A stretch of 21,763 nt of DNA from a virus, in the IMG/VR virus record IMGVR_UViG_3300003324_000620, positions 1-21,763 of that record. One strand, given 5' to 3'. Of the stretch, positions 1,229 through 15,413 are shown piece by piece. Position 1 is the stretch's first letter, and the number at the start of each line of letters is the position of its first letter. Below the pieces are notes generated by a model. That model made no database searches. It had not been told where the DNA came from and saw only the letters and a program-made list of their open reading frames with translations. The translations under genes and the position numbers were made by a program.

Positions 1229-1654
1229 TCACGGGATCCGCAACTCCGCAGAATCGATCAGCTCGTGAAGACGGTCAGCCTCGGCGCGGGTCAACGCGTC
1301 GAGGCGGGCGCGGGCGGTGGGCACGTCGACCCAGAGCACCTCGGCGAGCTCGTGGTCGTCGTACGCCCACACCATCGCGCGGGCGAGCTCGTCGAAGCTG
1401 ATCAGCCGGCGTGCGGCCTCACGACAGACCGCAGCCTCCTCGCGGCTGGCGCACCAGCTGGGCACCGGACCGCGCTCGTGGTGGACCAGCTCGTGGGTGA
1501 GCGCTGAACGTCGTTGGGCCTGCGACATGCCGGGGCGCATCCGGATCTCTCCGGTGTCGAACGTGATGGTGGCGAGGACGCCGTCGGGCAGGTCGTGGGT
1601 CCAGCGGACGGTCAGGTGGCCGAGCTTCTGGAGGATGCGCCAGGGGTGGTACAC
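1229..1654 (-). CDS. ImmA/IrrE family metallopeptidase
   Basis: Predicted zinc peptidase of 141 residues. HELVH at residues 54-58 is the HExxH zinc motif, and a conserved E60 and RGPVP follow. The pattern YHPWR near the N-terminus, LPDG, a GEIRM strand, and a C-terminal ELAEVLWVDVPT-RLDALT segment match the ImmA/IrrE form common in actinobacterial phages. In known cases (ImmA of ICEBs1) the enzyme cleaves the phage-type repressor to trigger induction, so the repressor at 2811-3278 is the likely substrate; that is inference. The open frame extends upstream to 1852, but the extra residues are Arg/Ser-rich and overlap the preceding gene, so GTG at 1654 is preferred. No Shine-Dalgarno is obvious, but a TANNNT -10-like hexamer lies 8 bases upstream, so a leaderless start is possible. 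Confidence 0.85.
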   Translation of the reverse strand: MYHPWRILQKLGHLTVRWTHDLPDGVLATITFDTGEIRMRPGMSQAQRRSALTHELVHHERGPVPSWCASREEAAVCREAARRLISFDELARAMVWAYDDHELAEVLWVDVPTARARLDALTRAEADRLHELIDSAELRIP

Positions 1655-1662
1655 GTCACCAG

Positions 1663-1668
1663 ACCGTA
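1663..1668 (-). promoter_or_regulatory. Possible -10 hexamer for a leaderless immA transcript
   Basis: On the minus strand TACGGT (TANNNT type) ends 8 bases before the GTG at 1654, in the 67-base gap after the preceding gene. The same hexamer lies 6 bases before the repressor ATG. Leaderless mRNAs with a -10 box immediately before the start codon are common in actinobacteria. No convincing -35 box is present. Confidence 0.25.
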
Positions 1669-1721
1669 GGACACCGACGCCGCTCGCACAGGGCAAATTC
1701 CGACAAAAGGCGCAGGAAAGG

Positions 1722-2231
1722 TCACGATCTTGCGGCGAGGTCGCGAGCCCTGGCGAGACGCTTAGCCAAACGCTCCTGCGTCGCCCCGGGCCCCCGCCGC
1801 TCCGGCGGACACGCCGCCTCCCACCGCTCGATGATCGCGATCTCGGCCGCATACTCCTTGCGCCGGTGGTAGATCACCGCAGCACGCTCGGTGTAGCCCG
1901 GCGCGGGCTCACGCCCGATCACCCTCGCTACCCGCTCGGCAGCGTCCACGCACTCGAGCAGGATCCCCAGGGCGGCGTCATCCTTCTTCTCGGTCCGGAG
2001 CTTGTCGAGGGTCGGGATCCAGTCAACGTAGAAGAGGCCGCGCACTTCGCCGGCCCGGTGCTCCAGCGCCCACAGCGTGCGGGCGTACCCCGCGAGATCT
2101 CCGCCTGGTCGCGCTTTGACTCGTTCGTACTCGGCGCGTGTCTCTTCACCGAGGGTGGCGGCTTGCTCTGGTGTGACGTGATCGAACTGGGGCGGAAGCC
2201 GGACGTCGCTCTTCCTGAGGATTCGCTTCAT
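1722..2231 (-). CDS. Conserved phage/actinobacterial protein of unknown function, TPR-like C-terminus
   Basis: The product has 169 residues and is soluble and helical. The C-terminal half (about residues 85-165) contains LLECVDAAERVARVIG, then YTERAAVIYHRRKEYAAE and IAIIERWE, and ends QERLAKRLARARDLA. This matches a helical repeat I recognise from many actinobacterial proteins, where an AIIYRKRKDYAAEVAILERY-like pair of helices follows other domains (often a HIRAN domain) and resembles a TPR unit. The first half has no domain I recognise. It starts at ATG 2231, 13 bases after the lipoprotein stop, with only a weak GAGG upstream, and is probably translated from the repressor-operon mRNA. A regulatory or protein-binding role is plausible but unproven. 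Confidence 0.75.
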   Translation of the reverse strand: MKRILRKSDVRLPPQFDHVTPEQAATLGEETRAEYERVKARPGGDLAGYARTLWALEHRAGEVRGLFYVDWIPTLDKLRTEKKDDAALGILLECVDAAERVARVIGREPAPGYTERAAVIYHRRKEYAAEIAIIERWEAACPPERRGPGATQERLAKRLARARDLAARS

Positions 2232-2244
2232 CTGGAGCGCGACC

Positions 2245-2814
2245 TCACTGGGGTATCACCCAGTCGGCTACGTGATCTCCATCTGGCACATACTCGAGGT
2301 ACTTCGCGTGCACACTCTTGGGGACCTCAAATCCGATCCAGCCTCGAACGCACTCGCCCGGCTGCAAGGAACGCAGCTCCGGGTACCGAGGCGTCGGCCA
2401 GTCCACCCAGATGCCCACATTCGATGTGTAGTGGTCACCGGCCTGGTCTGCGATTGAGAAGTCGACTTCTGACGCCGAGTACAGGTCTCCTTCTGCCGGA
2501 TCCGCTTGCGGCGAGACGCAGGTCTTGAGCATCCACGCCATGGTCTTCTTGCCCGGCTCTGGCGTGTGAAAGCTGGCGGGATCAGGTGGCAATGGGTTCC
2601 GGATCTCCGTGACGGTGGTGGTGAACGCTGACCCGGTCCGCGTCTGCCCGATGCGAAGGGCCTTCGGTCCGATGTTGTACGCGTGCGGGGCAGCGGTGGC
2701 GCTCTTAGTGGGCCTCGTCTTGGGCGACTGATCGTCGTGCTTGGCGGAGTGACCGCAGCTCGAGCTGGCCATAACGACCAGAGCCAGCGTTGCCACACGC
2801 GCAATCGGTCTCAC
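2245..2814 (-). CDS. Secreted lipoprotein, DUF4352-like; candidate exclusion factor
   Basis: The product has 189 residues. The N-terminus has a signal peptide: MRPIAR, a hydrophobic stretch (residues 7-16), then ASSSC with cysteine at residue 20. The lipobox is degenerate (Ser at -3), but a lipidated Cys20 is the simplest reading. A Lys/Asp/Ser/Thr-rich linker follows to about residue 50. The rest resembles the immunoglobulin-like DUF4352/telokin-like fold: IGQT...AFTTTVTEI, then a two-strand core, LQPGECVRGWIGFEVPK and YVPDG near the end. The GTG start overlaps the repressor stop (GTGA), with GGAG 5 bases upstream, so expression in the lysogen is expected. Lipoproteins in phage lysogeny modules, such as Ltp of streptococcal phage TP-J34, can block superinfection, and that role is inferred here. 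Its codon use is less GC-biased than the early genes. Confidence 0.8.
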   Translation of the reverse strand: MRPIARVATLALVVMASSSCGHSAKHDDQSPKTRPTKSATAAPHAYNIGPKALRIGQTRTGSAFTTTVTEIRNPLPPDPASFHTPEPGKKTMAWMLKTCVSPQADPAEGDLYSASEVDFSIADQAGDHYTSNVGIWVDWPTPRYPELRSLQPGECVRGWIGFEVPKSVHAKYLEYVPDGDHVADWVIPQ

Positions 2815-3278
2815 CTTGGCTCCATGTCCCCCGGGTCCTGCGATCCGGCCTCGATCTGATCCTGTGACCCCGAGACGTGCAAGGTATCCGGCTTGCCGCG
2901 GTACGCGGCGCGGTTTTCGGAAAGTTGCGGGTCCGGCCTCTCACTTGCACGGCGAGCGGTCCTGATGCGCGGAACAGAGCGCGCGGCCATCCTCCGGCGC
3001 ACTTCGGCGAGCAGCTCGTCGTCAGTGAGGTCGTCGAGCGATGGCGCCGCGGCGGGGCGCTCCCCTGCCTCCTCGCCCGTGATGAATCCGGCTGCGACGA
3101 ACGCCTCCACGACGGGCCGTTCGTATGCCCTCGCGAACGCTGCAACGTTCTCGGCTTTCCCGGGCGACTTCGAGCTCTTCCAGCGCGACACCGTGGACTG
3201 ATCGATCCCAGCCTTCGCGGCGATCGCCTTCTGATCGTCTCCGGCTGAGATCCGTTCGACGTACCGCCACCAGTTCAT
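2811..3278 (-). CDS. XRE-type HTH immunity repressor
   Basis: The product is a DNA-binding protein of 155 residues. A helix-turn-helix lies near residues 16-36 (QKAIAAKAGIDQSTVSRWK). A helical segment with ARAYERPVVEAFVAAGF follows, then an acidic LDDLTDDELLAEVRRRM helix (about 81-97) that could mediate oligomerisation, and a basic, probably disordered tail. This arrangement is typical of actinophage repressors. It is the first gene of the leftward operon and diverges from the Cro-like gene across the operator region. The ATG at 3278 has no Shine-Dalgarno but has TACGGT 6 bases upstream, inside the perfect palindrome at 3281-3295. Repressor bound there would cover its own -10 box, giving autoregulation (inference). 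It is the likely substrate of the ImmA-like peptidase encoded downstream. Confidence 0.87.
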   Translation of the reverse strand: MNWWRYVERISAGDDQKAIAAKAGIDQSTVSRWKSSKSPGKAENVAAFARAYERPVVEAFVAAGFITGEEAGERPAAAPSLDDLTDDELLAEVRRRMAARSVPRIRTARRASERPDPQLSENRAAYRGKPDTLHVSGSQDQIEAGSQDPGDMEPR

Positions 3279-3280
3279 CC

Positions 3281-3295
3281 CGCAACCGTATTGCG
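3281..3295. promoter_or_regulatory. Operator-like palindrome CGCAA-N5-TTGCG over the repressor -10
   Basis: CGCAACCGTATTGCG is a perfect inverted repeat with 5-base arms and a 5-base centre. On the minus strand the centre and one arm contain TACGGT, which ends 6 bases before the repressor ATG. The TTGCG half-site recurs at 3327-3332, 3398-3402 and 3431-3435. It is a likely repressor or Cro operator. Confidence 0.55.
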
Positions 3296-3312
3296 TGAAT
3301 GCATCTTGTTAC

Positions 3313-3333
3313 ACGCAACCCGCCCGGTTGCGT
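3313..3333. promoter_or_regulatory. Operator-like inverted repeat ACGCAACC-N5-GGTTGCGT
   Basis: Perfect 8-base arms flank CGCCC. The arms contain the same CGCAA/TTGCG half-sites as 3281-3295, but the half-sites are 9 rather than 5 bases apart. It lies in the divergent promoter region between repressor and Cro-like gene, so it is a strong operator candidate. No T-run follows on either strand, which argues against a terminator. Confidence 0.6.
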
Positions 3334-3395
3334 CGCCGCAACTGCGCAGGTCAGCGAGTTACGCCGCTGTCTTTCAGCAGGTCAGCGAACCCTTG

Positions 3396-3405
3396 CTTGC
3401 GCAAG
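3396..3405. promoter_or_regulatory. Short palindrome CTTGCGCAAG
   Basis: A perfect 10-base palindrome made of two abutting TTGCG/CGCAA half-sites in the control region. Two CGTTACC direct copies (3413-3419 and 3424-3430) and another TTGCGTGATTGCG stretch (3431-3443) follow at once. It is probably part of the operator array, although a 10-base palindrome alone is weak evidence. Confidence 0.4.
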
Positions 3406-3446
3406 ACGAGCCCGTTACCAATTCGTTACCTTGCGTGATTGCGATT

Positions 3447-3475
3447 TTGCATATGTACCTGTACCTTCATATTCA
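3447..3475 (+). promoter_or_regulatory. Putative rightward early promoter
   Basis: TTGCAT (3447-3452), a 17-base spacer and TATTCA (3470-3475) form a reasonable sigma-70-like promoter in the most AT-rich part of the window. The predicted start near 3482 gives a leader of about 40 bases to the Cro-like ATG at 3524, with a strong GAAGGAGG Shine-Dalgarno at 3512-3519. Flanking TTGCG half-sites and GCAGGTCAGCG repeats would let a repressor occlude it. Confidence 0.5.
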
Positions 3476-3523
3476 TCACCGCAAGACAGCAGGTCAGCGG
3501 CTCACACCATCGAAGGAGGCGCC

Positions 3524-3763
3524 ATGACGGCAACACTCCGCCTCAAGACTGAGCAGCTCGCGAAGATCCGGAAGTGGGTCGGGCTGACCACCGATGCCGC
3601 GCTCGCGGCTCGCATGGGTATCGACGCCGGCAACCTGTCTCGGGTCCTGCGTGGCATCCAGCAGCCGGGCCCGAAGTTCATCGCCGCTCTCTGTGTCGCG
3701 CTCGACGCGGACCTGGCCGATCTGTTCGAGGTCGTTCCGCCCGCCGATGGCGAGGTGGCGTGA
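3524..3763 (+). CDS. Cro-like HTH regulator
   Basis: The product is a small XRE-family protein of 79 residues. Its helix-turn-helix is near residues 22-43 (DAALAARMGIDAGNLSRVLRG), followed by PGPKFIAALCVALDADLADLFEVV, the usual last helices of this fold. The ATG at 3524 is chosen because GAAGGAGG lies 4 bases upstream. The frame stays open back to 3299, but that stretch covers the operators and promoter. It is the first gene of the rightward early operon and sits opposite the repressor, so a Cro-like or early-switch role is likely. The next gene starts inside its stop codon (TGATG). Confidence 0.82.
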   Translation: MTATLRLKTEQLAKIRKWVGLTTDAALAARMGIDAGNLSRVLRGIQQPGPKFIAALCVALDADLADLFEVVPPADGEVA

Positions 3764-3960
3764 TGCCGTCGCGTGAGGAGTGCATCCGCCGCGCCGGCGA
3801 AATCCTCGCCGAGGGCGAGATCGCGGCCGCGCAGATGACTCCCCGGGAGCAGGCCGAAGCCGCCTGGACCCCCACCTCGCCGTACACCGTCGACGAGCTC
3901 GAAGACCTCATCCGGGCGGACCGGGGGCTCCCGCCGAAGCACTCGGCCGCAGCCTCCTGA
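3763..3960 (+). CDS. Small acidic protein of unknown function
   Basis: The product has 65 residues and is helical and acidic: MPSREECIRRAGEILAEGEI at the start, then MTPREQAEAAW and YTVDELEDLIRADRG. No domain is recognised. The ATG shares its A with the stop codon of the Cro-like gene, which implies translational coupling. It is followed by a 59-base stretch that can form two competing hairpins, so it closes the first short transcript unit of the early operon. Small proteins at this position are common in actinophages and generally uncharacterised. Confidence 0.68.
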   Translation: MPSREECIRRAGEILAEGEIAAAQMTPREQAEAAWTPTSPYTVDELEDLIRADRGLPPKHSAAAS

Positions 3961-3963
3961 GAC

Positions 3964-4022
3964 CCCCGCAAAAAGAAAGCGGGGCCGGACCCCAAGCCCA
4001 TCAAGCGACGGAGTCCGGCCCC
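3964..4022 (+). terminator. Two mutually exclusive hairpins (attenuator-like)
   Basis: Hairpin A pairs CCCCGC (3964-3969) with GCGGGG (3979-3984) around a 9-base A-rich loop. Hairpin B pairs GGGGCCGGAC (3981-3990) with GTCCGGCCCC (4013-4022), a perfect 10-base stem with a 22-base loop. They share 3981-3984 and cannot both be complete. No U-run follows B, so intrinsic termination would be inefficient. An RBS (GAGAGAAGGAAA) and the ATG at 4048 come next. It could be a leaky terminator, an attenuator or an mRNA-stabilising structure. Confidence 0.5.
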
Positions 4023-12685: not shown

Positions 12686-13035
12686 GGTCGACCCAGAAGA
12701 TCCCCAGGTTGAGCGGGTTTTGCAACCCGGCGAATCCGCCGGCGTCGCACACGCTGTGTCGGATGGAGGGCTGCACCTGCACCCACCACACCGACCTCGG
12801 GCAGACGCAGCGGCACAGCGCCGTCGTTGCCCTCCTCGCGCAGCTCCACGCCGGCGTCGAGTCGGGTGTCTCCCTCGCGTTTGAGGTCGCCCAGCACCAC
12901 CGCCCCACCCACCCCACCAGCGAGCCTGACCGGTGGTACTGCGGCGAACTGTGGTGCCACTCGACGTGGCCATGCCGCCCGTTCCTCCTCGCGGAGGAGA
13001 TCGCGAATAGCAGACCCGGCGAGGTGTCCCGCTGA
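12682..13035 (+). CDS. Cysteine/histidine-rich protein, putative zinc binding
   Basis: The product has 117 residues. Cys and His cluster in two regions: FCNPANPP...HTLCRMEGCTCTHH near residues 13-40 and YCGELWCHSTWPC near 86-98. The central part is a helix (HSAVVALLAQLHAGVESGVSLAFEVAQHH). Such clusters imply structural zinc. No family is recognised. Its ATG overlaps the HNH stop by four bases and its stop overlaps the WhiB start, so it is co-translated with both. Confidence 0.6.
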   Translation: MRSTQKIPRLSGFCNPANPPASHTLCRMEGCTCTHHTDLGQTQRHSAVVALLAQLHAGVESGVSLAFEVAQHHRPTHPTSEPDRWYCGELWCHSTWPCRPFLLAEEIANSRPGEVSR

Positions 13036-13580
13036 TGTTCCACCGCCCCGAGTCCTGGACCGAACACGCCGCCTGCATCGGCCTCACCAGCCCCGACCGC
13101 GACCCCTGGGCCCCCGGCGACTGGCTCACCCCCGAACAGACCGGCGCCGAGTACTACGTCGCGCGGAGTATCTGCGCCGGCTGCCCCGTCCGCATGGAGT
13201 GCGTCACCGACGAACTCGCCATCCTCGACACCCACGAACCCGCTGCGATGCGCGGCGGCCTCACTCCCGACGAACTCCTCGACCTCGGCCACCAGCTCGG
13301 CATCACCCAGCCCGCCACCCGCTCCAAGCACGGCACCAGGAGCAGGTACGTCGGCGGCTGTCGCTGCGACCGGTGCCGCAACGCCCACCGCATCTACGAG
13401 CACGAACGCCGACTGTGGGCCAAGACCACCCGACGCACGGTCACCGCCCACGACGTCCAGGCCTGGCTCGCCCGCCCACTCGGCCGCGGCCGCCATCGTG
13501 CCGAGCCCGGGCAACTGCTGCTGTTCACCGACGGACTCCCCAAGCGCTACATCGCTGCCTCAACTTCCGAGGCCAGCTAA
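13035..13580 (+). CDS. WhiB-family iron-sulfur regulator with C-terminal Cys extension
   Basis: The product has 181 residues. The WhiB core has C14 (AACIG), C47, C50 and C56 (CAGCPVRMEC), the four ligands of a [4Fe-4S] cluster, and a GG-turn (AMRGGLTPDEL). WhiB proteins bind sigma factors and regulate transcription; in mycobacteriophage TM4 a WhiB protein inhibits host WhiB2 and contributes to superinfection exclusion. Beyond residue 98 there is an extra segment with HGTRSRY and C109, C111, C114 (GCRCDRC), a small motif seen elsewhere in actinobacteria. It is the last plus-strand gene before two opposing genes, and its stop overlaps the stop of the first of them. Confidence 0.85.
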   Translation: MFHRPESWTEHAACIGLTSPDRDPWAPGDWLTPEQTGAEYYVARSICAGCPVRMECVTDELAILDTHEPAAMRGGLTPDELLDLGHQLGITQPATRSKHGTRSRYVGGCRCDRCRNAHRIYEHERRLWAKTTRRTVTAHDVQAWLARPLGRGRHRAEPGQLLLFTDGLPKRYIAASTSEAS

Positions 13581-14125
13581 CTTCGGGACTTGGACACCTC
13601 ACCAGTCAGTTCGAGGCGCATCTCCTCGAGTAGGAGCAGCGAGCATTCTCTGAGCTTCTCAACACCGGCCGGAGCCGTCTTGAGGTCGCTCGCGAGGTCT
13701 GTAAGCACCTCGTCGAGAGCGACAGTGAACGCGCAGAAGGCCGCGCGGACGTCTGCCCCTGCGACCAGCTCCATGAGCGGTATGTGCTCACGCACCCATC
13801 CACCGGCGGCAACGAGGTCGTCGGCAGACCTTCGAACAGCACCCTTGTTGCCTTCCGGGTTATCCGGATCGATAGATCCCTCGCGAGGATCGAAACGCCC
13901 GATCGCCCACCCGGCCCGGTACGTCTGCCGCAGGCACTCGACATAGAGCGCTTCGCGACGCTCGCGACGCTGTCTGTTCTCCTCAGCTAAACGCTCATCC
14001 TCTGCCAAGGCAATCGACGTTCTCTTGTTCAACGAAGCGACCGCGTAACTCACAATGCCAGTCAAGACACTACCTGCGAGAACGAACCCGCCACCGAGCA
14101 GAGTCGCCTGAGTCTGAGGGTCCAT
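13577..14125 (-). CDS. Membrane-anchored helical protein, paralogue of the next gene
   Basis: The product has 182 residues. One transmembrane helix lies near residues 8-31 (LLGGGFVLAGSVLTGIVSYAVA), then a charged helix (LAEDERLAEENRQRRERREALYVECLRQTY), a loop, and a helical domain with ADVRAAF at 124-130 and LRECSLLLLEEMRLEL near the end. It lies opposite to the surrounding operons and has less GC-biased codons. It shares architecture with 14197-14658: VLAG near the start, R-rich juxtamembrane helix, VRAAF, and a similar end. A leaderless start is possible. Likely lysogenic cargo; function unknown. Confidence 0.75.
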   Translation of the reverse strand: MDPQTQATLLGGGFVLAGSVLTGIVSYAVASLNKRTSIALAEDERLAEENRQRRERREALYVECLRQTYRAGWAIGRFDPREGSIDPDNPEGNKGAVRRSADDLVAAGGWVREHIPLMELVAGADVRAAFCAFTVALDEVLTDLASDLKTAPAGVEKLRECSLLLLEEMRLELTGEVSKSRS

Positions 14126-14196
14126 GGTCGAATCCTGACACCACTGGTCGCAGAGCAGTCGGCATCCCCGTCGCGCTACCTTGCCGGACCGGCGGC

Positions 14197-14658
14197 CTAG
14201 TTCCAGACCCCGAGCTGGCGCCGCATCGCGGCAATCAATGCTTCGAAAGCCTTGTCGTACTCGATCTCTGCCGCGCGGCCCGTTCCTCCGTTCTTGATCT
14301 CAGTCAGGATCTGCCCCCCCTTATCGAGACACTCCCAGAAGGCTGCTCGAACGCTGGCGTCGGCGTAGAGCGCTATTTTCGGCATCCCGGTTGTTCGAAG
14401 TTGCTGGACCTGTTGCTGGAAATGTTCGAATGCCTCACCGTCTCCGTTCTTCCACTCCTCGACCGTGTCACCCAGCCCGAACACAGCCATCAGCACCTCC
14501 ACCAGGCCGAGGTAAATGTCCTCGCGCCGGGCCCTAACAGAGGCTTGCAACGCGACGAGGTGATCGCGTCGAGAGATCCTCATACTGATCCAGCCAGAGC
14601 AGAGCGCCCCAGCGAGCACCGAACTCGACGAGATCAGCGCAAGCCCTAGATCCGACAT
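14197..14658 (-). CDS. Membrane-anchored helical protein, paralogue of the previous gene
   Basis: The product has 153 residues. A transmembrane helix lies near residues 6-28 (LALISSSSVLAGALCSGWISM), followed by a juxtamembrane basic helix (SRRDHLVALQASVRARREDIY), then ASVRAAF at 101-107 and a helical end (IEYDKAFEALIAAMRRQLGVW). The ATG at 14658 has no Shine-Dalgarno, but GATAGT ends 6 bases upstream, and GTTGCGG[AG]ATG here matches the repressor start region almost exactly. A shared promoter type would mean lysogenic expression. The 71-base gap to the downstream gene holds no terminator. Function unknown; exclusion or defence is inferred from position. Confidence 0.75.
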   Translation of the reverse strand: MSDLGLALISSSSVLAGALCSGWISMRISRRDHLVALQASVRARREDIYLGLVEVLMAVFGLGDTVEEWKNGDGEAFEHFQQQVQQLRTTGMPKIALYADASVRAAFWECLDKGGQILTEIKNGGTGRAAEIEYDKAFEALIAAMRRQLGVWN

Positions 14659-14702
14659 TCCGCAACTATCTCAAGAACCCGTTACCCAAGGAGTGATAAC
14701 AC

Positions 14703-14737
14703 TGCGACCGGTGCGACCGCTGACACCACCGGTCGCA
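14703..14737. repeat. 11-base inverted repeat upstream of the terminase module
   Basis: TGCGACCGGTG (14703-14713) pairs with CACCGGTCGCA (14727-14737) around a 13-base centre. GCGACCG occurs at 14704-14710 and 14713-14719, and inverted at 14730-14736. The site lies between divergent genes, 158 bases before the small terminase start, so an operator or a terminase recognition (cos/pac) site is more plausible than a terminator. The 90-base gap contains AAGGAG at 14688-14693 but no start codon at the right distance. Confidence 0.5.
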
Positions 14738-14748
14738 CCATCAGCCCC

Positions 14749-14892
14749 ATGCCCACCTGGTACACCCTGGCCTGCGCACTCGCACCAGCACCCGCACTCT
14801 GGTGGGCACTCAGACACGCCGGACTCTCCACCGACCCCTCATCCCGCGCATGGCGCCAACACCGCGCCTCCGGCCGCACTCCCCACCGGTAA
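14749..14892 (+). CDS. Small hydrophobic N-terminus protein upstream of terminase
   Basis: The product has 47 residues. Its first 25 residues are moderately hydrophobic with paired Trp (MPTWYTLACALAPAPALWWAL) and could form one membrane helix. The tail is basic (RAWRQHRASGRTPHR). The stop is 2 bases before the terminase ATG, which suggests coupling, but the gene has no clear Shine-Dalgarno. It is short and could be spurious. Confidence 0.45.
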   Translation: MPTWYTLACALAPAPALWWALRHAGLSTDPSSRAWRQHRASGRTPHR

Positions 14893-14894
14893 CC

Positions 14895-15413
14895 ATGCCC
14901 AAGCCACTCGACCAGGCAAAACGCGAAGCCATCGAGCACGACATCCGCGCCGGCCACAGCCGCAACGCCATCGCCCGAGACCACGGCGTCTCCGGCTCCA
15001 CCGTCACCAAGATCGCCAAGACCCTCGAAGCACTCGAAGGCGCCACGCCTGCGTTCGACCGGTCGGCGACAAAACGCGCGACTGAAGCTCGGGCGGTGGA
15101 CCTGGCGGAGTCTCGGTCGAGGTTGCGGGAGCTGCTCCTCGAGGACGCTCACCGGCTCCGGAAGCAGCTCTGGATGCCGTGTGTGGCGCACAACTTCGGC
15201 GGGAAGGACAACACGTACAACGAGCACGAGTTGCCGCAGCCGACGTTCGCGGATCAGGCGAAGATCATGACGTCGGTGGGGATCGCGGTCGACAAGATCA
15301 TCCGGCTGGATGGTGGCGACGCGGCGGAGCAGCAGGCAGCGTCGCTGATGCACTCGTTGGTGGACGAGATCCGGTCCCGTCGAGCGGCTGGCGGTGCGGA
15401 TGCCGCTCAGTGA
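14895..15413 (+). CDS. Terminase small subunit
   Basis: The product has 172 residues. The N-terminal helix-turn-helix (about residues 20-45, GHSRNAIARDHGVSGSTVTKIAKTLE) is the resolvase-like DNA-binding fold of small terminases. After it come a helical linker (RELLLEDAHRLRKQLW), LPQPTFADQAKIMTSVGIAVDKIIRLDGGDAAEQ, and an end with DEIRSRRAAGG. The adjoining large terminase fixes the role: the small subunit binds phage DNA at the packaging site and recruits TerL. The ATG at 14895 follows the previous stop by two bases. The frame stays open upstream of this ATG, but that stretch is read in the 47-residue gene. Confidence 0.8.
   Translation: MPKPLDQAKREAIEHDIRAGHSRNAIARDHGVSGSTVTKIAKTLEALEGATPAFDRSATKRATEARAVDLAESRSRLRELLLEDAHRLRKQLWMPCVAHNFGGKDNTYNEHELPQPTFADQAKIMTSVGIAVDKIIRLDGGDAAEQQAASLMHSLVDEIRSRRAAGGADAAQ

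What the first reader, a model, noticed from the sequence alone, without database searches (positions are those of the whole stretch)
13577..14658. Two paralogous membrane-anchored genes inserted against the flow between early and late operons
Both encode one N-terminal transmembrane helix, a basic juxtamembrane helix and a helical cytosolic domain with a VRAAF motif (ADVRAAF and ASVRAAF). They are on the minus strand, interrupt a plus-strand genome, are less GC-biased in codon use and have no structural role by position. This is the profile of lysogenic cargo such as superinfection-exclusion or anti-phage systems. Tandem paralogues with separate functions, perhaps sensor and effector, are possible.
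Basis: partly seen in the sequence, partly recalled or inferred. Interest (0 to 1): 0.62.

Follow-up and report, generated by a model that had tools for sequence, protein, structure and literature searches.

The report
Phage-borne pair of membrane-anchored cargo genes
A temperate phage of an actinobacterium carries, backwards between its early and packaging genes, two small membrane-anchored proteins that belong to a widespread but unnamed family of actinobacterial chromosome genes; they look like cargo for the dormant prophage, but what they do is not known.

Summary
Two minus-strand ORFs (13577-14125, 182 aa; 14197-14658, 153 aa) interrupt a plus-strand phage between a WhiB-like gene and the small-terminase/terminase genes. 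Their GC3 is 0.68 and 0.73, against about 0.89 in the surrounding lytic genes. In the closest syntenic phage contig (L085) the site lacks them. New here: both belong to a broad, uncurated family of actinobacterial proteins (N-terminal membrane helix, basic coil with RRxxY, cytosolic helical domain). A profile built only from 42 chromosomal members finds P0001 (E 4e-9) and P0002 (E 2e-4) among about 17,000 ORFs. The family occurs in 38 of 297 Actinomycetes genomes, often in several copies, as solitary genes without conserved neighbours. It has no significant match in Pfam, NCBIfam or PHROGs, no PADLOC match shared by more than one member, and was not found in other phages searched. The two are homologous, but each scores higher with some chromosomal members than with the other, so a recent tandem duplication is unlikely. 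Best reading: host-derived lysogenic-conversion cargo (a moron). Superinfection exclusion is possible, but nothing found supports it specifically; the sensor/effector idea has no support.

The parts
13577..14125 (-). P0001, 182 aa: N-terminal membrane helix, basic coil (RERREALY), cytosolic helical domain
   Evidence: 42-member chromosomal profile without it, E 3.8e-9
14197..14658 (-). P0002, 153 aa: same architecture (RARREDIY ... ASVRAAF ... AAMRRQLG); upstream of P0001, 71-bp gap, probably co-transcribed (inference)
   Evidence: chromosomal profiles without it, E 9e-7 and 2e-4
14135..14152 (+). copy 1 of an 18-bp repeat CTGACACCACTGGTCGCA, just 5' of the P0001 start; role unknown
14720..14737 (+). 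copy 2 (17/18 identical), in an inverted repeat 14710-14739 upstream of P0002 and of the terS region; the same site occurs once in L085 at the same place
14659..14719 (-). likely promoter region of the P0002-P0001 unit (GATAGT 6 nt before the ATG, leaderless type); inference only
   Evidence: sequence. The sigma-70 scan found no site
13035..13580 (+). WhiB-like gene, left border; convergent with P0001, stops overlap
   Evidence: Pfam Whib 1.5e-6
14895..15413 (+). terminase-small-like HTH protein, right border (start probably 14895, MPKPLDQ..., as in L085)
   Evidence: phrog_5536 1.8e-43

Best explanation
The pair is a moron-type cargo unit in a temperate actinophage. Two divergent members of an actinobacterial family of membrane-anchored proteins lie on the minus strand between the early genes and the packaging genes. 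Shown: family membership, orientation, atypical composition, absence from the nearest syntenic relative. Inferred: P0002-P0001 is transcribed leftward, independently of the lytic programme, in the lysogen. Each protein is held by its N-terminal helix on the inner face of the membrane, with its helical domain in the cytosol; the two may associate. The pair then alters the membrane or envelope of the lysogen. My single most likely specific outcome is interference with entry of other phages (about 30%); a general fitness effect with no anti-phage role is about as likely.
For: Temperate phage: serine integrase, HTH repressor and Cro-like gene. Family: HMM of 42 chromosomal members without the pair finds P0001 3.8e-9 and P0002 2.1e-4; a 12-member model gives 7e-7 and 9e-7. 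38 of 297 Actinomycetes genomes carry members, up to 5 copies; 0 of 149 in another phylum. Topology: 36 of 38 members have more K/R after the TM than before it. Empty site in L085; nothing comparable next to terS/terL in SV1 or ToastyFinz. Other minus-strand N-TM genes lie upstream of terS in a few related phages (L023, L254, L334). GC3 low; chromosomal members also average below their neighbours, 0.79 against 0.86.
Against: No expression data. No clear own promoter or terminator. No family member has a known function, and no conserved neighbours give a clue. PADLOC gives only isolated, weak single-member matches in the family. None of the phages searched carries the family, so there is no recurrence among phages to show selection for a phage function; the tblastn searches may be blunted by the low-complexity filter.
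Confidence: 0.55

Rival explanations
1. Host-derived accessory genes with a general cellular role (for example a membrane-associated adaptor in envelope or stress physiology), carried as lysogenic fitness genes or by chance, with no anti-phage role.
For: Relatives are solitary, patchy, often multi-copy chromosomal genes without conserved neighbours or detected phage genes nearby; only isolated weak PADLOC matches.
Against: Two members side by side in a compact phage genome suggest selection; the family is absent from the other phages searched, so incidental capture is not frequent.
Confidence: 0.35
2. Lytic-cycle genes: membrane-associated inhibitors of a host defence, or regulators of lysis or host membrane, expressed leftward during infection.
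For: They adjoin the early/late boundary, share a divergent intergenic region with the terS operon and an 18-bp site conserved there.
Against: GC3 resembles the lysogeny genes rather than the lytic ones; relatives with the same packaging genes do without them.
Confidence: 0.15
3. A recent tandem duplicate that diverged into a two-component sensor/effector pair.
For: Adjacent, homologous, the same 18-bp site 5' of both genes; tandem members also occur in a chromosome (L240).
Against: P0001 scores best with L216/L214 (z 7.6/7.5) and P0002 with L219/L223 (z 7.1/6.7), against 4.9 for each other; the distances from the 18-bp site to the two start codons differ; no domain looks like an effector. The tree neither supports nor rejects a sister pair (AU p 0.29).
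Confidence: 0.08
4. Spurious ORFs.
For: No close homologue was found by single-sequence searches.
Against: Profile homology to real families for both, coding-like GC by codon position on the minus strand, precise fit to the WhiB stop.
Confidence: 0.02

Closest known systems
Unnamed actinobacterial family of membrane-anchored helical proteins
   Same: N-terminal TM, K/R-rich coil, RRxxY, GPxxV-type helix, C-terminal AxR..L helix in P0002; profile E-values significant
   Different: The pair is phage-borne, very divergent (about 15-25% identity) and has VRAAF in place of the usual GPdeV..A
Phage morons (lysogenic-conversion cargo, as in lambdoid phages)
   Same: Opposite orientation, atypical composition, absent from the relative with the same flanking genes
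   Different: Own terminator absent; promoter and prophage expression not shown
Lambda RexAB and its actinophage counterparts: Sbash gp30/gp31, CarolAnn gp44/gp43, Butters gp30/gp31 (PMC6426596, PMC6426606, PMC7542560)
   Same: Two adjacent prophage genes with a membrane component
   Different: Those systems pair a cytoplasmic protein (about 370 aa in Sbash and CarolAnn; DUF4747 match) with a 4-TM protein; here both proteins are short, N-terminally anchored and have no DUF4747 hit
Single-protein exclusion, e.g. the Charlie prophage membrane protein that blocks Che9c DNA injection (cited in PMC6426606)
   Same: Small prophage membrane protein; would work like this if exclusion is the role
   Different: No sequence comparison was made and no phenotype is known

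Membership tests
Unnamed actinobacterial TM-coil-helix family | Scores with a profile built from other members only | tested here: met
   P0001 3.8e-9, P0002 2.1e-4, best decoy 0.004; 7.2e-7, 9.4e-7, best decoy 0.12
Unnamed actinobacterial TM-coil-helix family | N-terminal membrane helix with positive charge on the C-terminal side | tested here: met
   No K/R before and 3 K/R in the 15 residues after the TM in both; 36 of 38 members alike
Unnamed actinobacterial TM-coil-helix family | R57 and Y61 (RRxxY) after the coil | tested here: met
   RERREALY and RARREDIY; nearly invariant columns of A3
Moron | Insertion between conserved genes, absent from relatives | tested here: met
   L085 has WhiB (56%) and terS (65%) without the pair; SV1, ToastyFinz without it
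Moron | Atypical base composition | tested here: met
   GC3 -3.5 and -2.6 sd from lytic genes
Moron | Own promoter and terminator | tested here: inconclusive
   No sigma-70 consensus; one terminator-like match inside P0001, at chance level; GATAGT before P0002 by eye
Moron | Expressed from the repressed prophage | not testable with these tools
   needs RNA from a lysogen
RexAB / Sbash gp30-gp31 type | 4-TM protein plus cytoplasmic DUF4747-like protein | tested here: not met
   One N-terminal TM each (a second hydrophobic stretch in P0002), no DUF4747 in Pfam scan
Known anti-phage systems (PADLOC-DB 2.0.0) | Match to a system model | tested here: not met
   P0001, P0002: 0 families; family members: four different models, one member each, best 0.0005
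Superinfection exclusion protein | Blocks infection by other phages | not testable with these tools
   phenotype

The most novel reading that the evidence does not exclude
The pair forms a membrane-bound prophage exclusion complex, and the chromosomal family it comes from is an unrecognised, actinobacteria-specific class of membrane-associated anti-phage proteins.
Probability: 0.1. Interest if true: 0.75.

Novelty: new member of a known kind. Interest (0 to 1): 0.36.

Why it matters
It turns an anonymous gene pair into a lead on a broad, uncurated protein family present in roughly one in eight of the Actinomycetes genomes sampled. A phage carrying two copies is a handle for finding the family's function, because phage cargo can be tested quickly for effects on lysogens. 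If the function is exclusion, many chromosomal copies become candidate defence genes.

Tried and rejected
Single-sequence searches in phages, plasmids, viral contigs and genomes gave only chance hits: L068 lies antisense to a glutamate-synthase-like gene, L338 is a TadC-like frame. Both AlphaFold models were built without an alignment and are weak (pLDDT 53 and 59); Foldseek found nothing. tblastn with the family consensus found no phage or plasmid match, but the low-complexity filter may hide some. 80 further contigs with related terS held no family member. The 18-bp site in viral contigs: of ten contigs only L136, the same contig as L085, is a relative; the rest look like chance. A 9-mer shared by the immunity region and the P0002 upstream region is at chance level. 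The L254 minus-strand protein resembles the pair in architecture only (z 1.0 and 0.6). Conserved neighbours of chromosomal members: one cluster in 3 loci only, at varying offsets; genes were called by a simple GC-based script, so this is coarse. Searches of the chromosomal neighbourhoods with about 38 phage proteins found none, which does not exclude unrelated prophages.

Full report
What is there. The window is a 21,763-base IMG/VR virus record. On the minus strand are a large serine integrase, cut by the window edge (2-1210), a gene with an HELVHH motif, a lipoprotein-like gene and an HTH repressor (2811-3278); a Cro-like gene starts the plus-strand early genes. The plus strand continues through an AAA ATPase, a C5 methyltransferase, an HNH gene and a WhiB-like gene, and after the two minus-strand genes through terS (phrog_5536), terL, portal and minor capsid protein. 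The phage is therefore temperate. WhiB and the closest ATPase relatives point to an actinobacterial host.

The observation. Their GC3 values are 3.5 and 2.6 standard deviations below the lytic genes. P0001 ends convergently on the WhiB stop. The claim of homology needed a test: BLASTP alone gives E 0.009 over 30 residues. The full alignment scores 52 against 30 +/- 5 for shuffles that keep the membrane part separate; 3-4 of 2000 reach it. That is real but remote homology.

The family. A profile of the two proteins (A1) on 297 Actinomycetes genomes drew in three proteins with the same plan (L151, L165, L159); with them (A2) nine more were found. To avoid circularity a model was built from the 12 chromosomal proteins without the phage pair: it finds P0001 at 7e-7 and P0002 at 9e-7, the best decoy at 0.12. 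Nine second-round members alone give 1.4e-8 and 0.0066. A larger model from 42 members gives 3.8e-9 and 2.1e-4, best decoy 0.004. Some circularity remains because the first members were chosen by likeness to the pair. The 13-row profile A3 finds the family in 38 of 297 Actinomycetes genomes, 59 places, up to five per genome, and in none of 149 genomes of another phylum. No Pfam or NCBIfam model covers it; PHROGs and PADLOC gave only scattered weak matches to single members or few.

Topology. 36 of 38 family members have more K/R after the membrane segment than before it, which places the helical domain in the cytosol (positive-inside rule). P0002 has a second hydrophobic stretch, so its topology is less certain.

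Relation of the two. P0001 scores best with L216 and L214, P0002 with L219 and L223, each higher than with the other. The tree cannot decide whether they are sisters (AU p 0.29). Recent tandem duplication is unlikely. Chromosomes also hold adjacent members (L240) and close ones (L220).

Position. The closest syntenic contig, L085, has the WhiB gene (56% identity) and terS (65%) with a short plus ORF, an inverted repeat and a 66-aa ORF between them, and no counterpart of the pair. SV1 and ToastyFinz have nothing comparable. Among 70 contigs with related terS, 51 have no minus-strand gene called in the 3 kb upstream; minus-strand genes with an N-terminal membrane helix were called in L334 and L023, and one just below the cut-off in L254/L264 (the same contig). 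They do not belong to this family. L260 also passes the hydrophobicity cut-off but looks spurious.

An 18-bp site occurs 5' of both genes and once in L085 at the homologous place before terS, inside an inverted repeat in the window. It may be a late-promoter or packaging site; P0002 sits between its two copies.

Mechanism. Shown: family, composition, position, absence from relatives. Inferred: leftward transcription in the lysogen, inner-membrane location, possible association, effect on the lysogen's membrane. Exclusion of other phages is the most likely single function, at about 30%. Known two-gene systems (RexAB, Sbash, CarolAnn, Butters) have a different make-up, so this is not filed with them.

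Verdict. An ordinary kind of thing (phage cargo) made of an uncurated protein family. Moderate interest.

Noticed in passing
window 14135-14152 and 14720-14737; L085 19639-19655: 18-bp near-identical repeat, the second copy within an inverted repeat (14710-14739), conserved in the nearest relative at the same place before terS; possible late operator or packaging site.
   Followed up: partly
window 2245-2814 (-): Lipoprotein-like gene (lipobox ASSSC, weak DUF4352 match, E 1.1e-4, below cut-off) between repressor and integrase; by position a better candidate for lysogenic exclusion than the pair.
   Followed up: no
window 3347, 3378, 3490: Three direct copies of CAGGTCAGCG in the immunity intergenic region, possible operators.
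   Followed up: no
window 1229-1852 (-): ORF with HELVHH zinc-peptidase motif (ImmA/IrrE-like by eye) but no Pfam hit.
   Followed up: no
window 14749-14892 (+): 47-aa plus ORF with a hydrophobic segment before terS; a 66-aa ORF stands there in L085. The true terS start is probably 14895.
   Followed up: partly
L023 913-1398 (-) and within 2855-3973 (-): Two minus-strand proteins with an N-terminal TM and a different, probably beta-rich domain, upstream of terS in a related phage.
   Followed up: partly
L254 3643-4176 (-): 178-aa protein with N-terminal TM and basic coil on the minus strand 1.8 kb upstream of terS; same plan, no sequence similarity.
   Followed up: partly
L214-L253: Chromosomal family members have lower GC3 than their neighbours on average (0.79 against 0.86; 20 of 42 lower by more than 0.08), as expected of mobile accessory genes.
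   Followed up: partly
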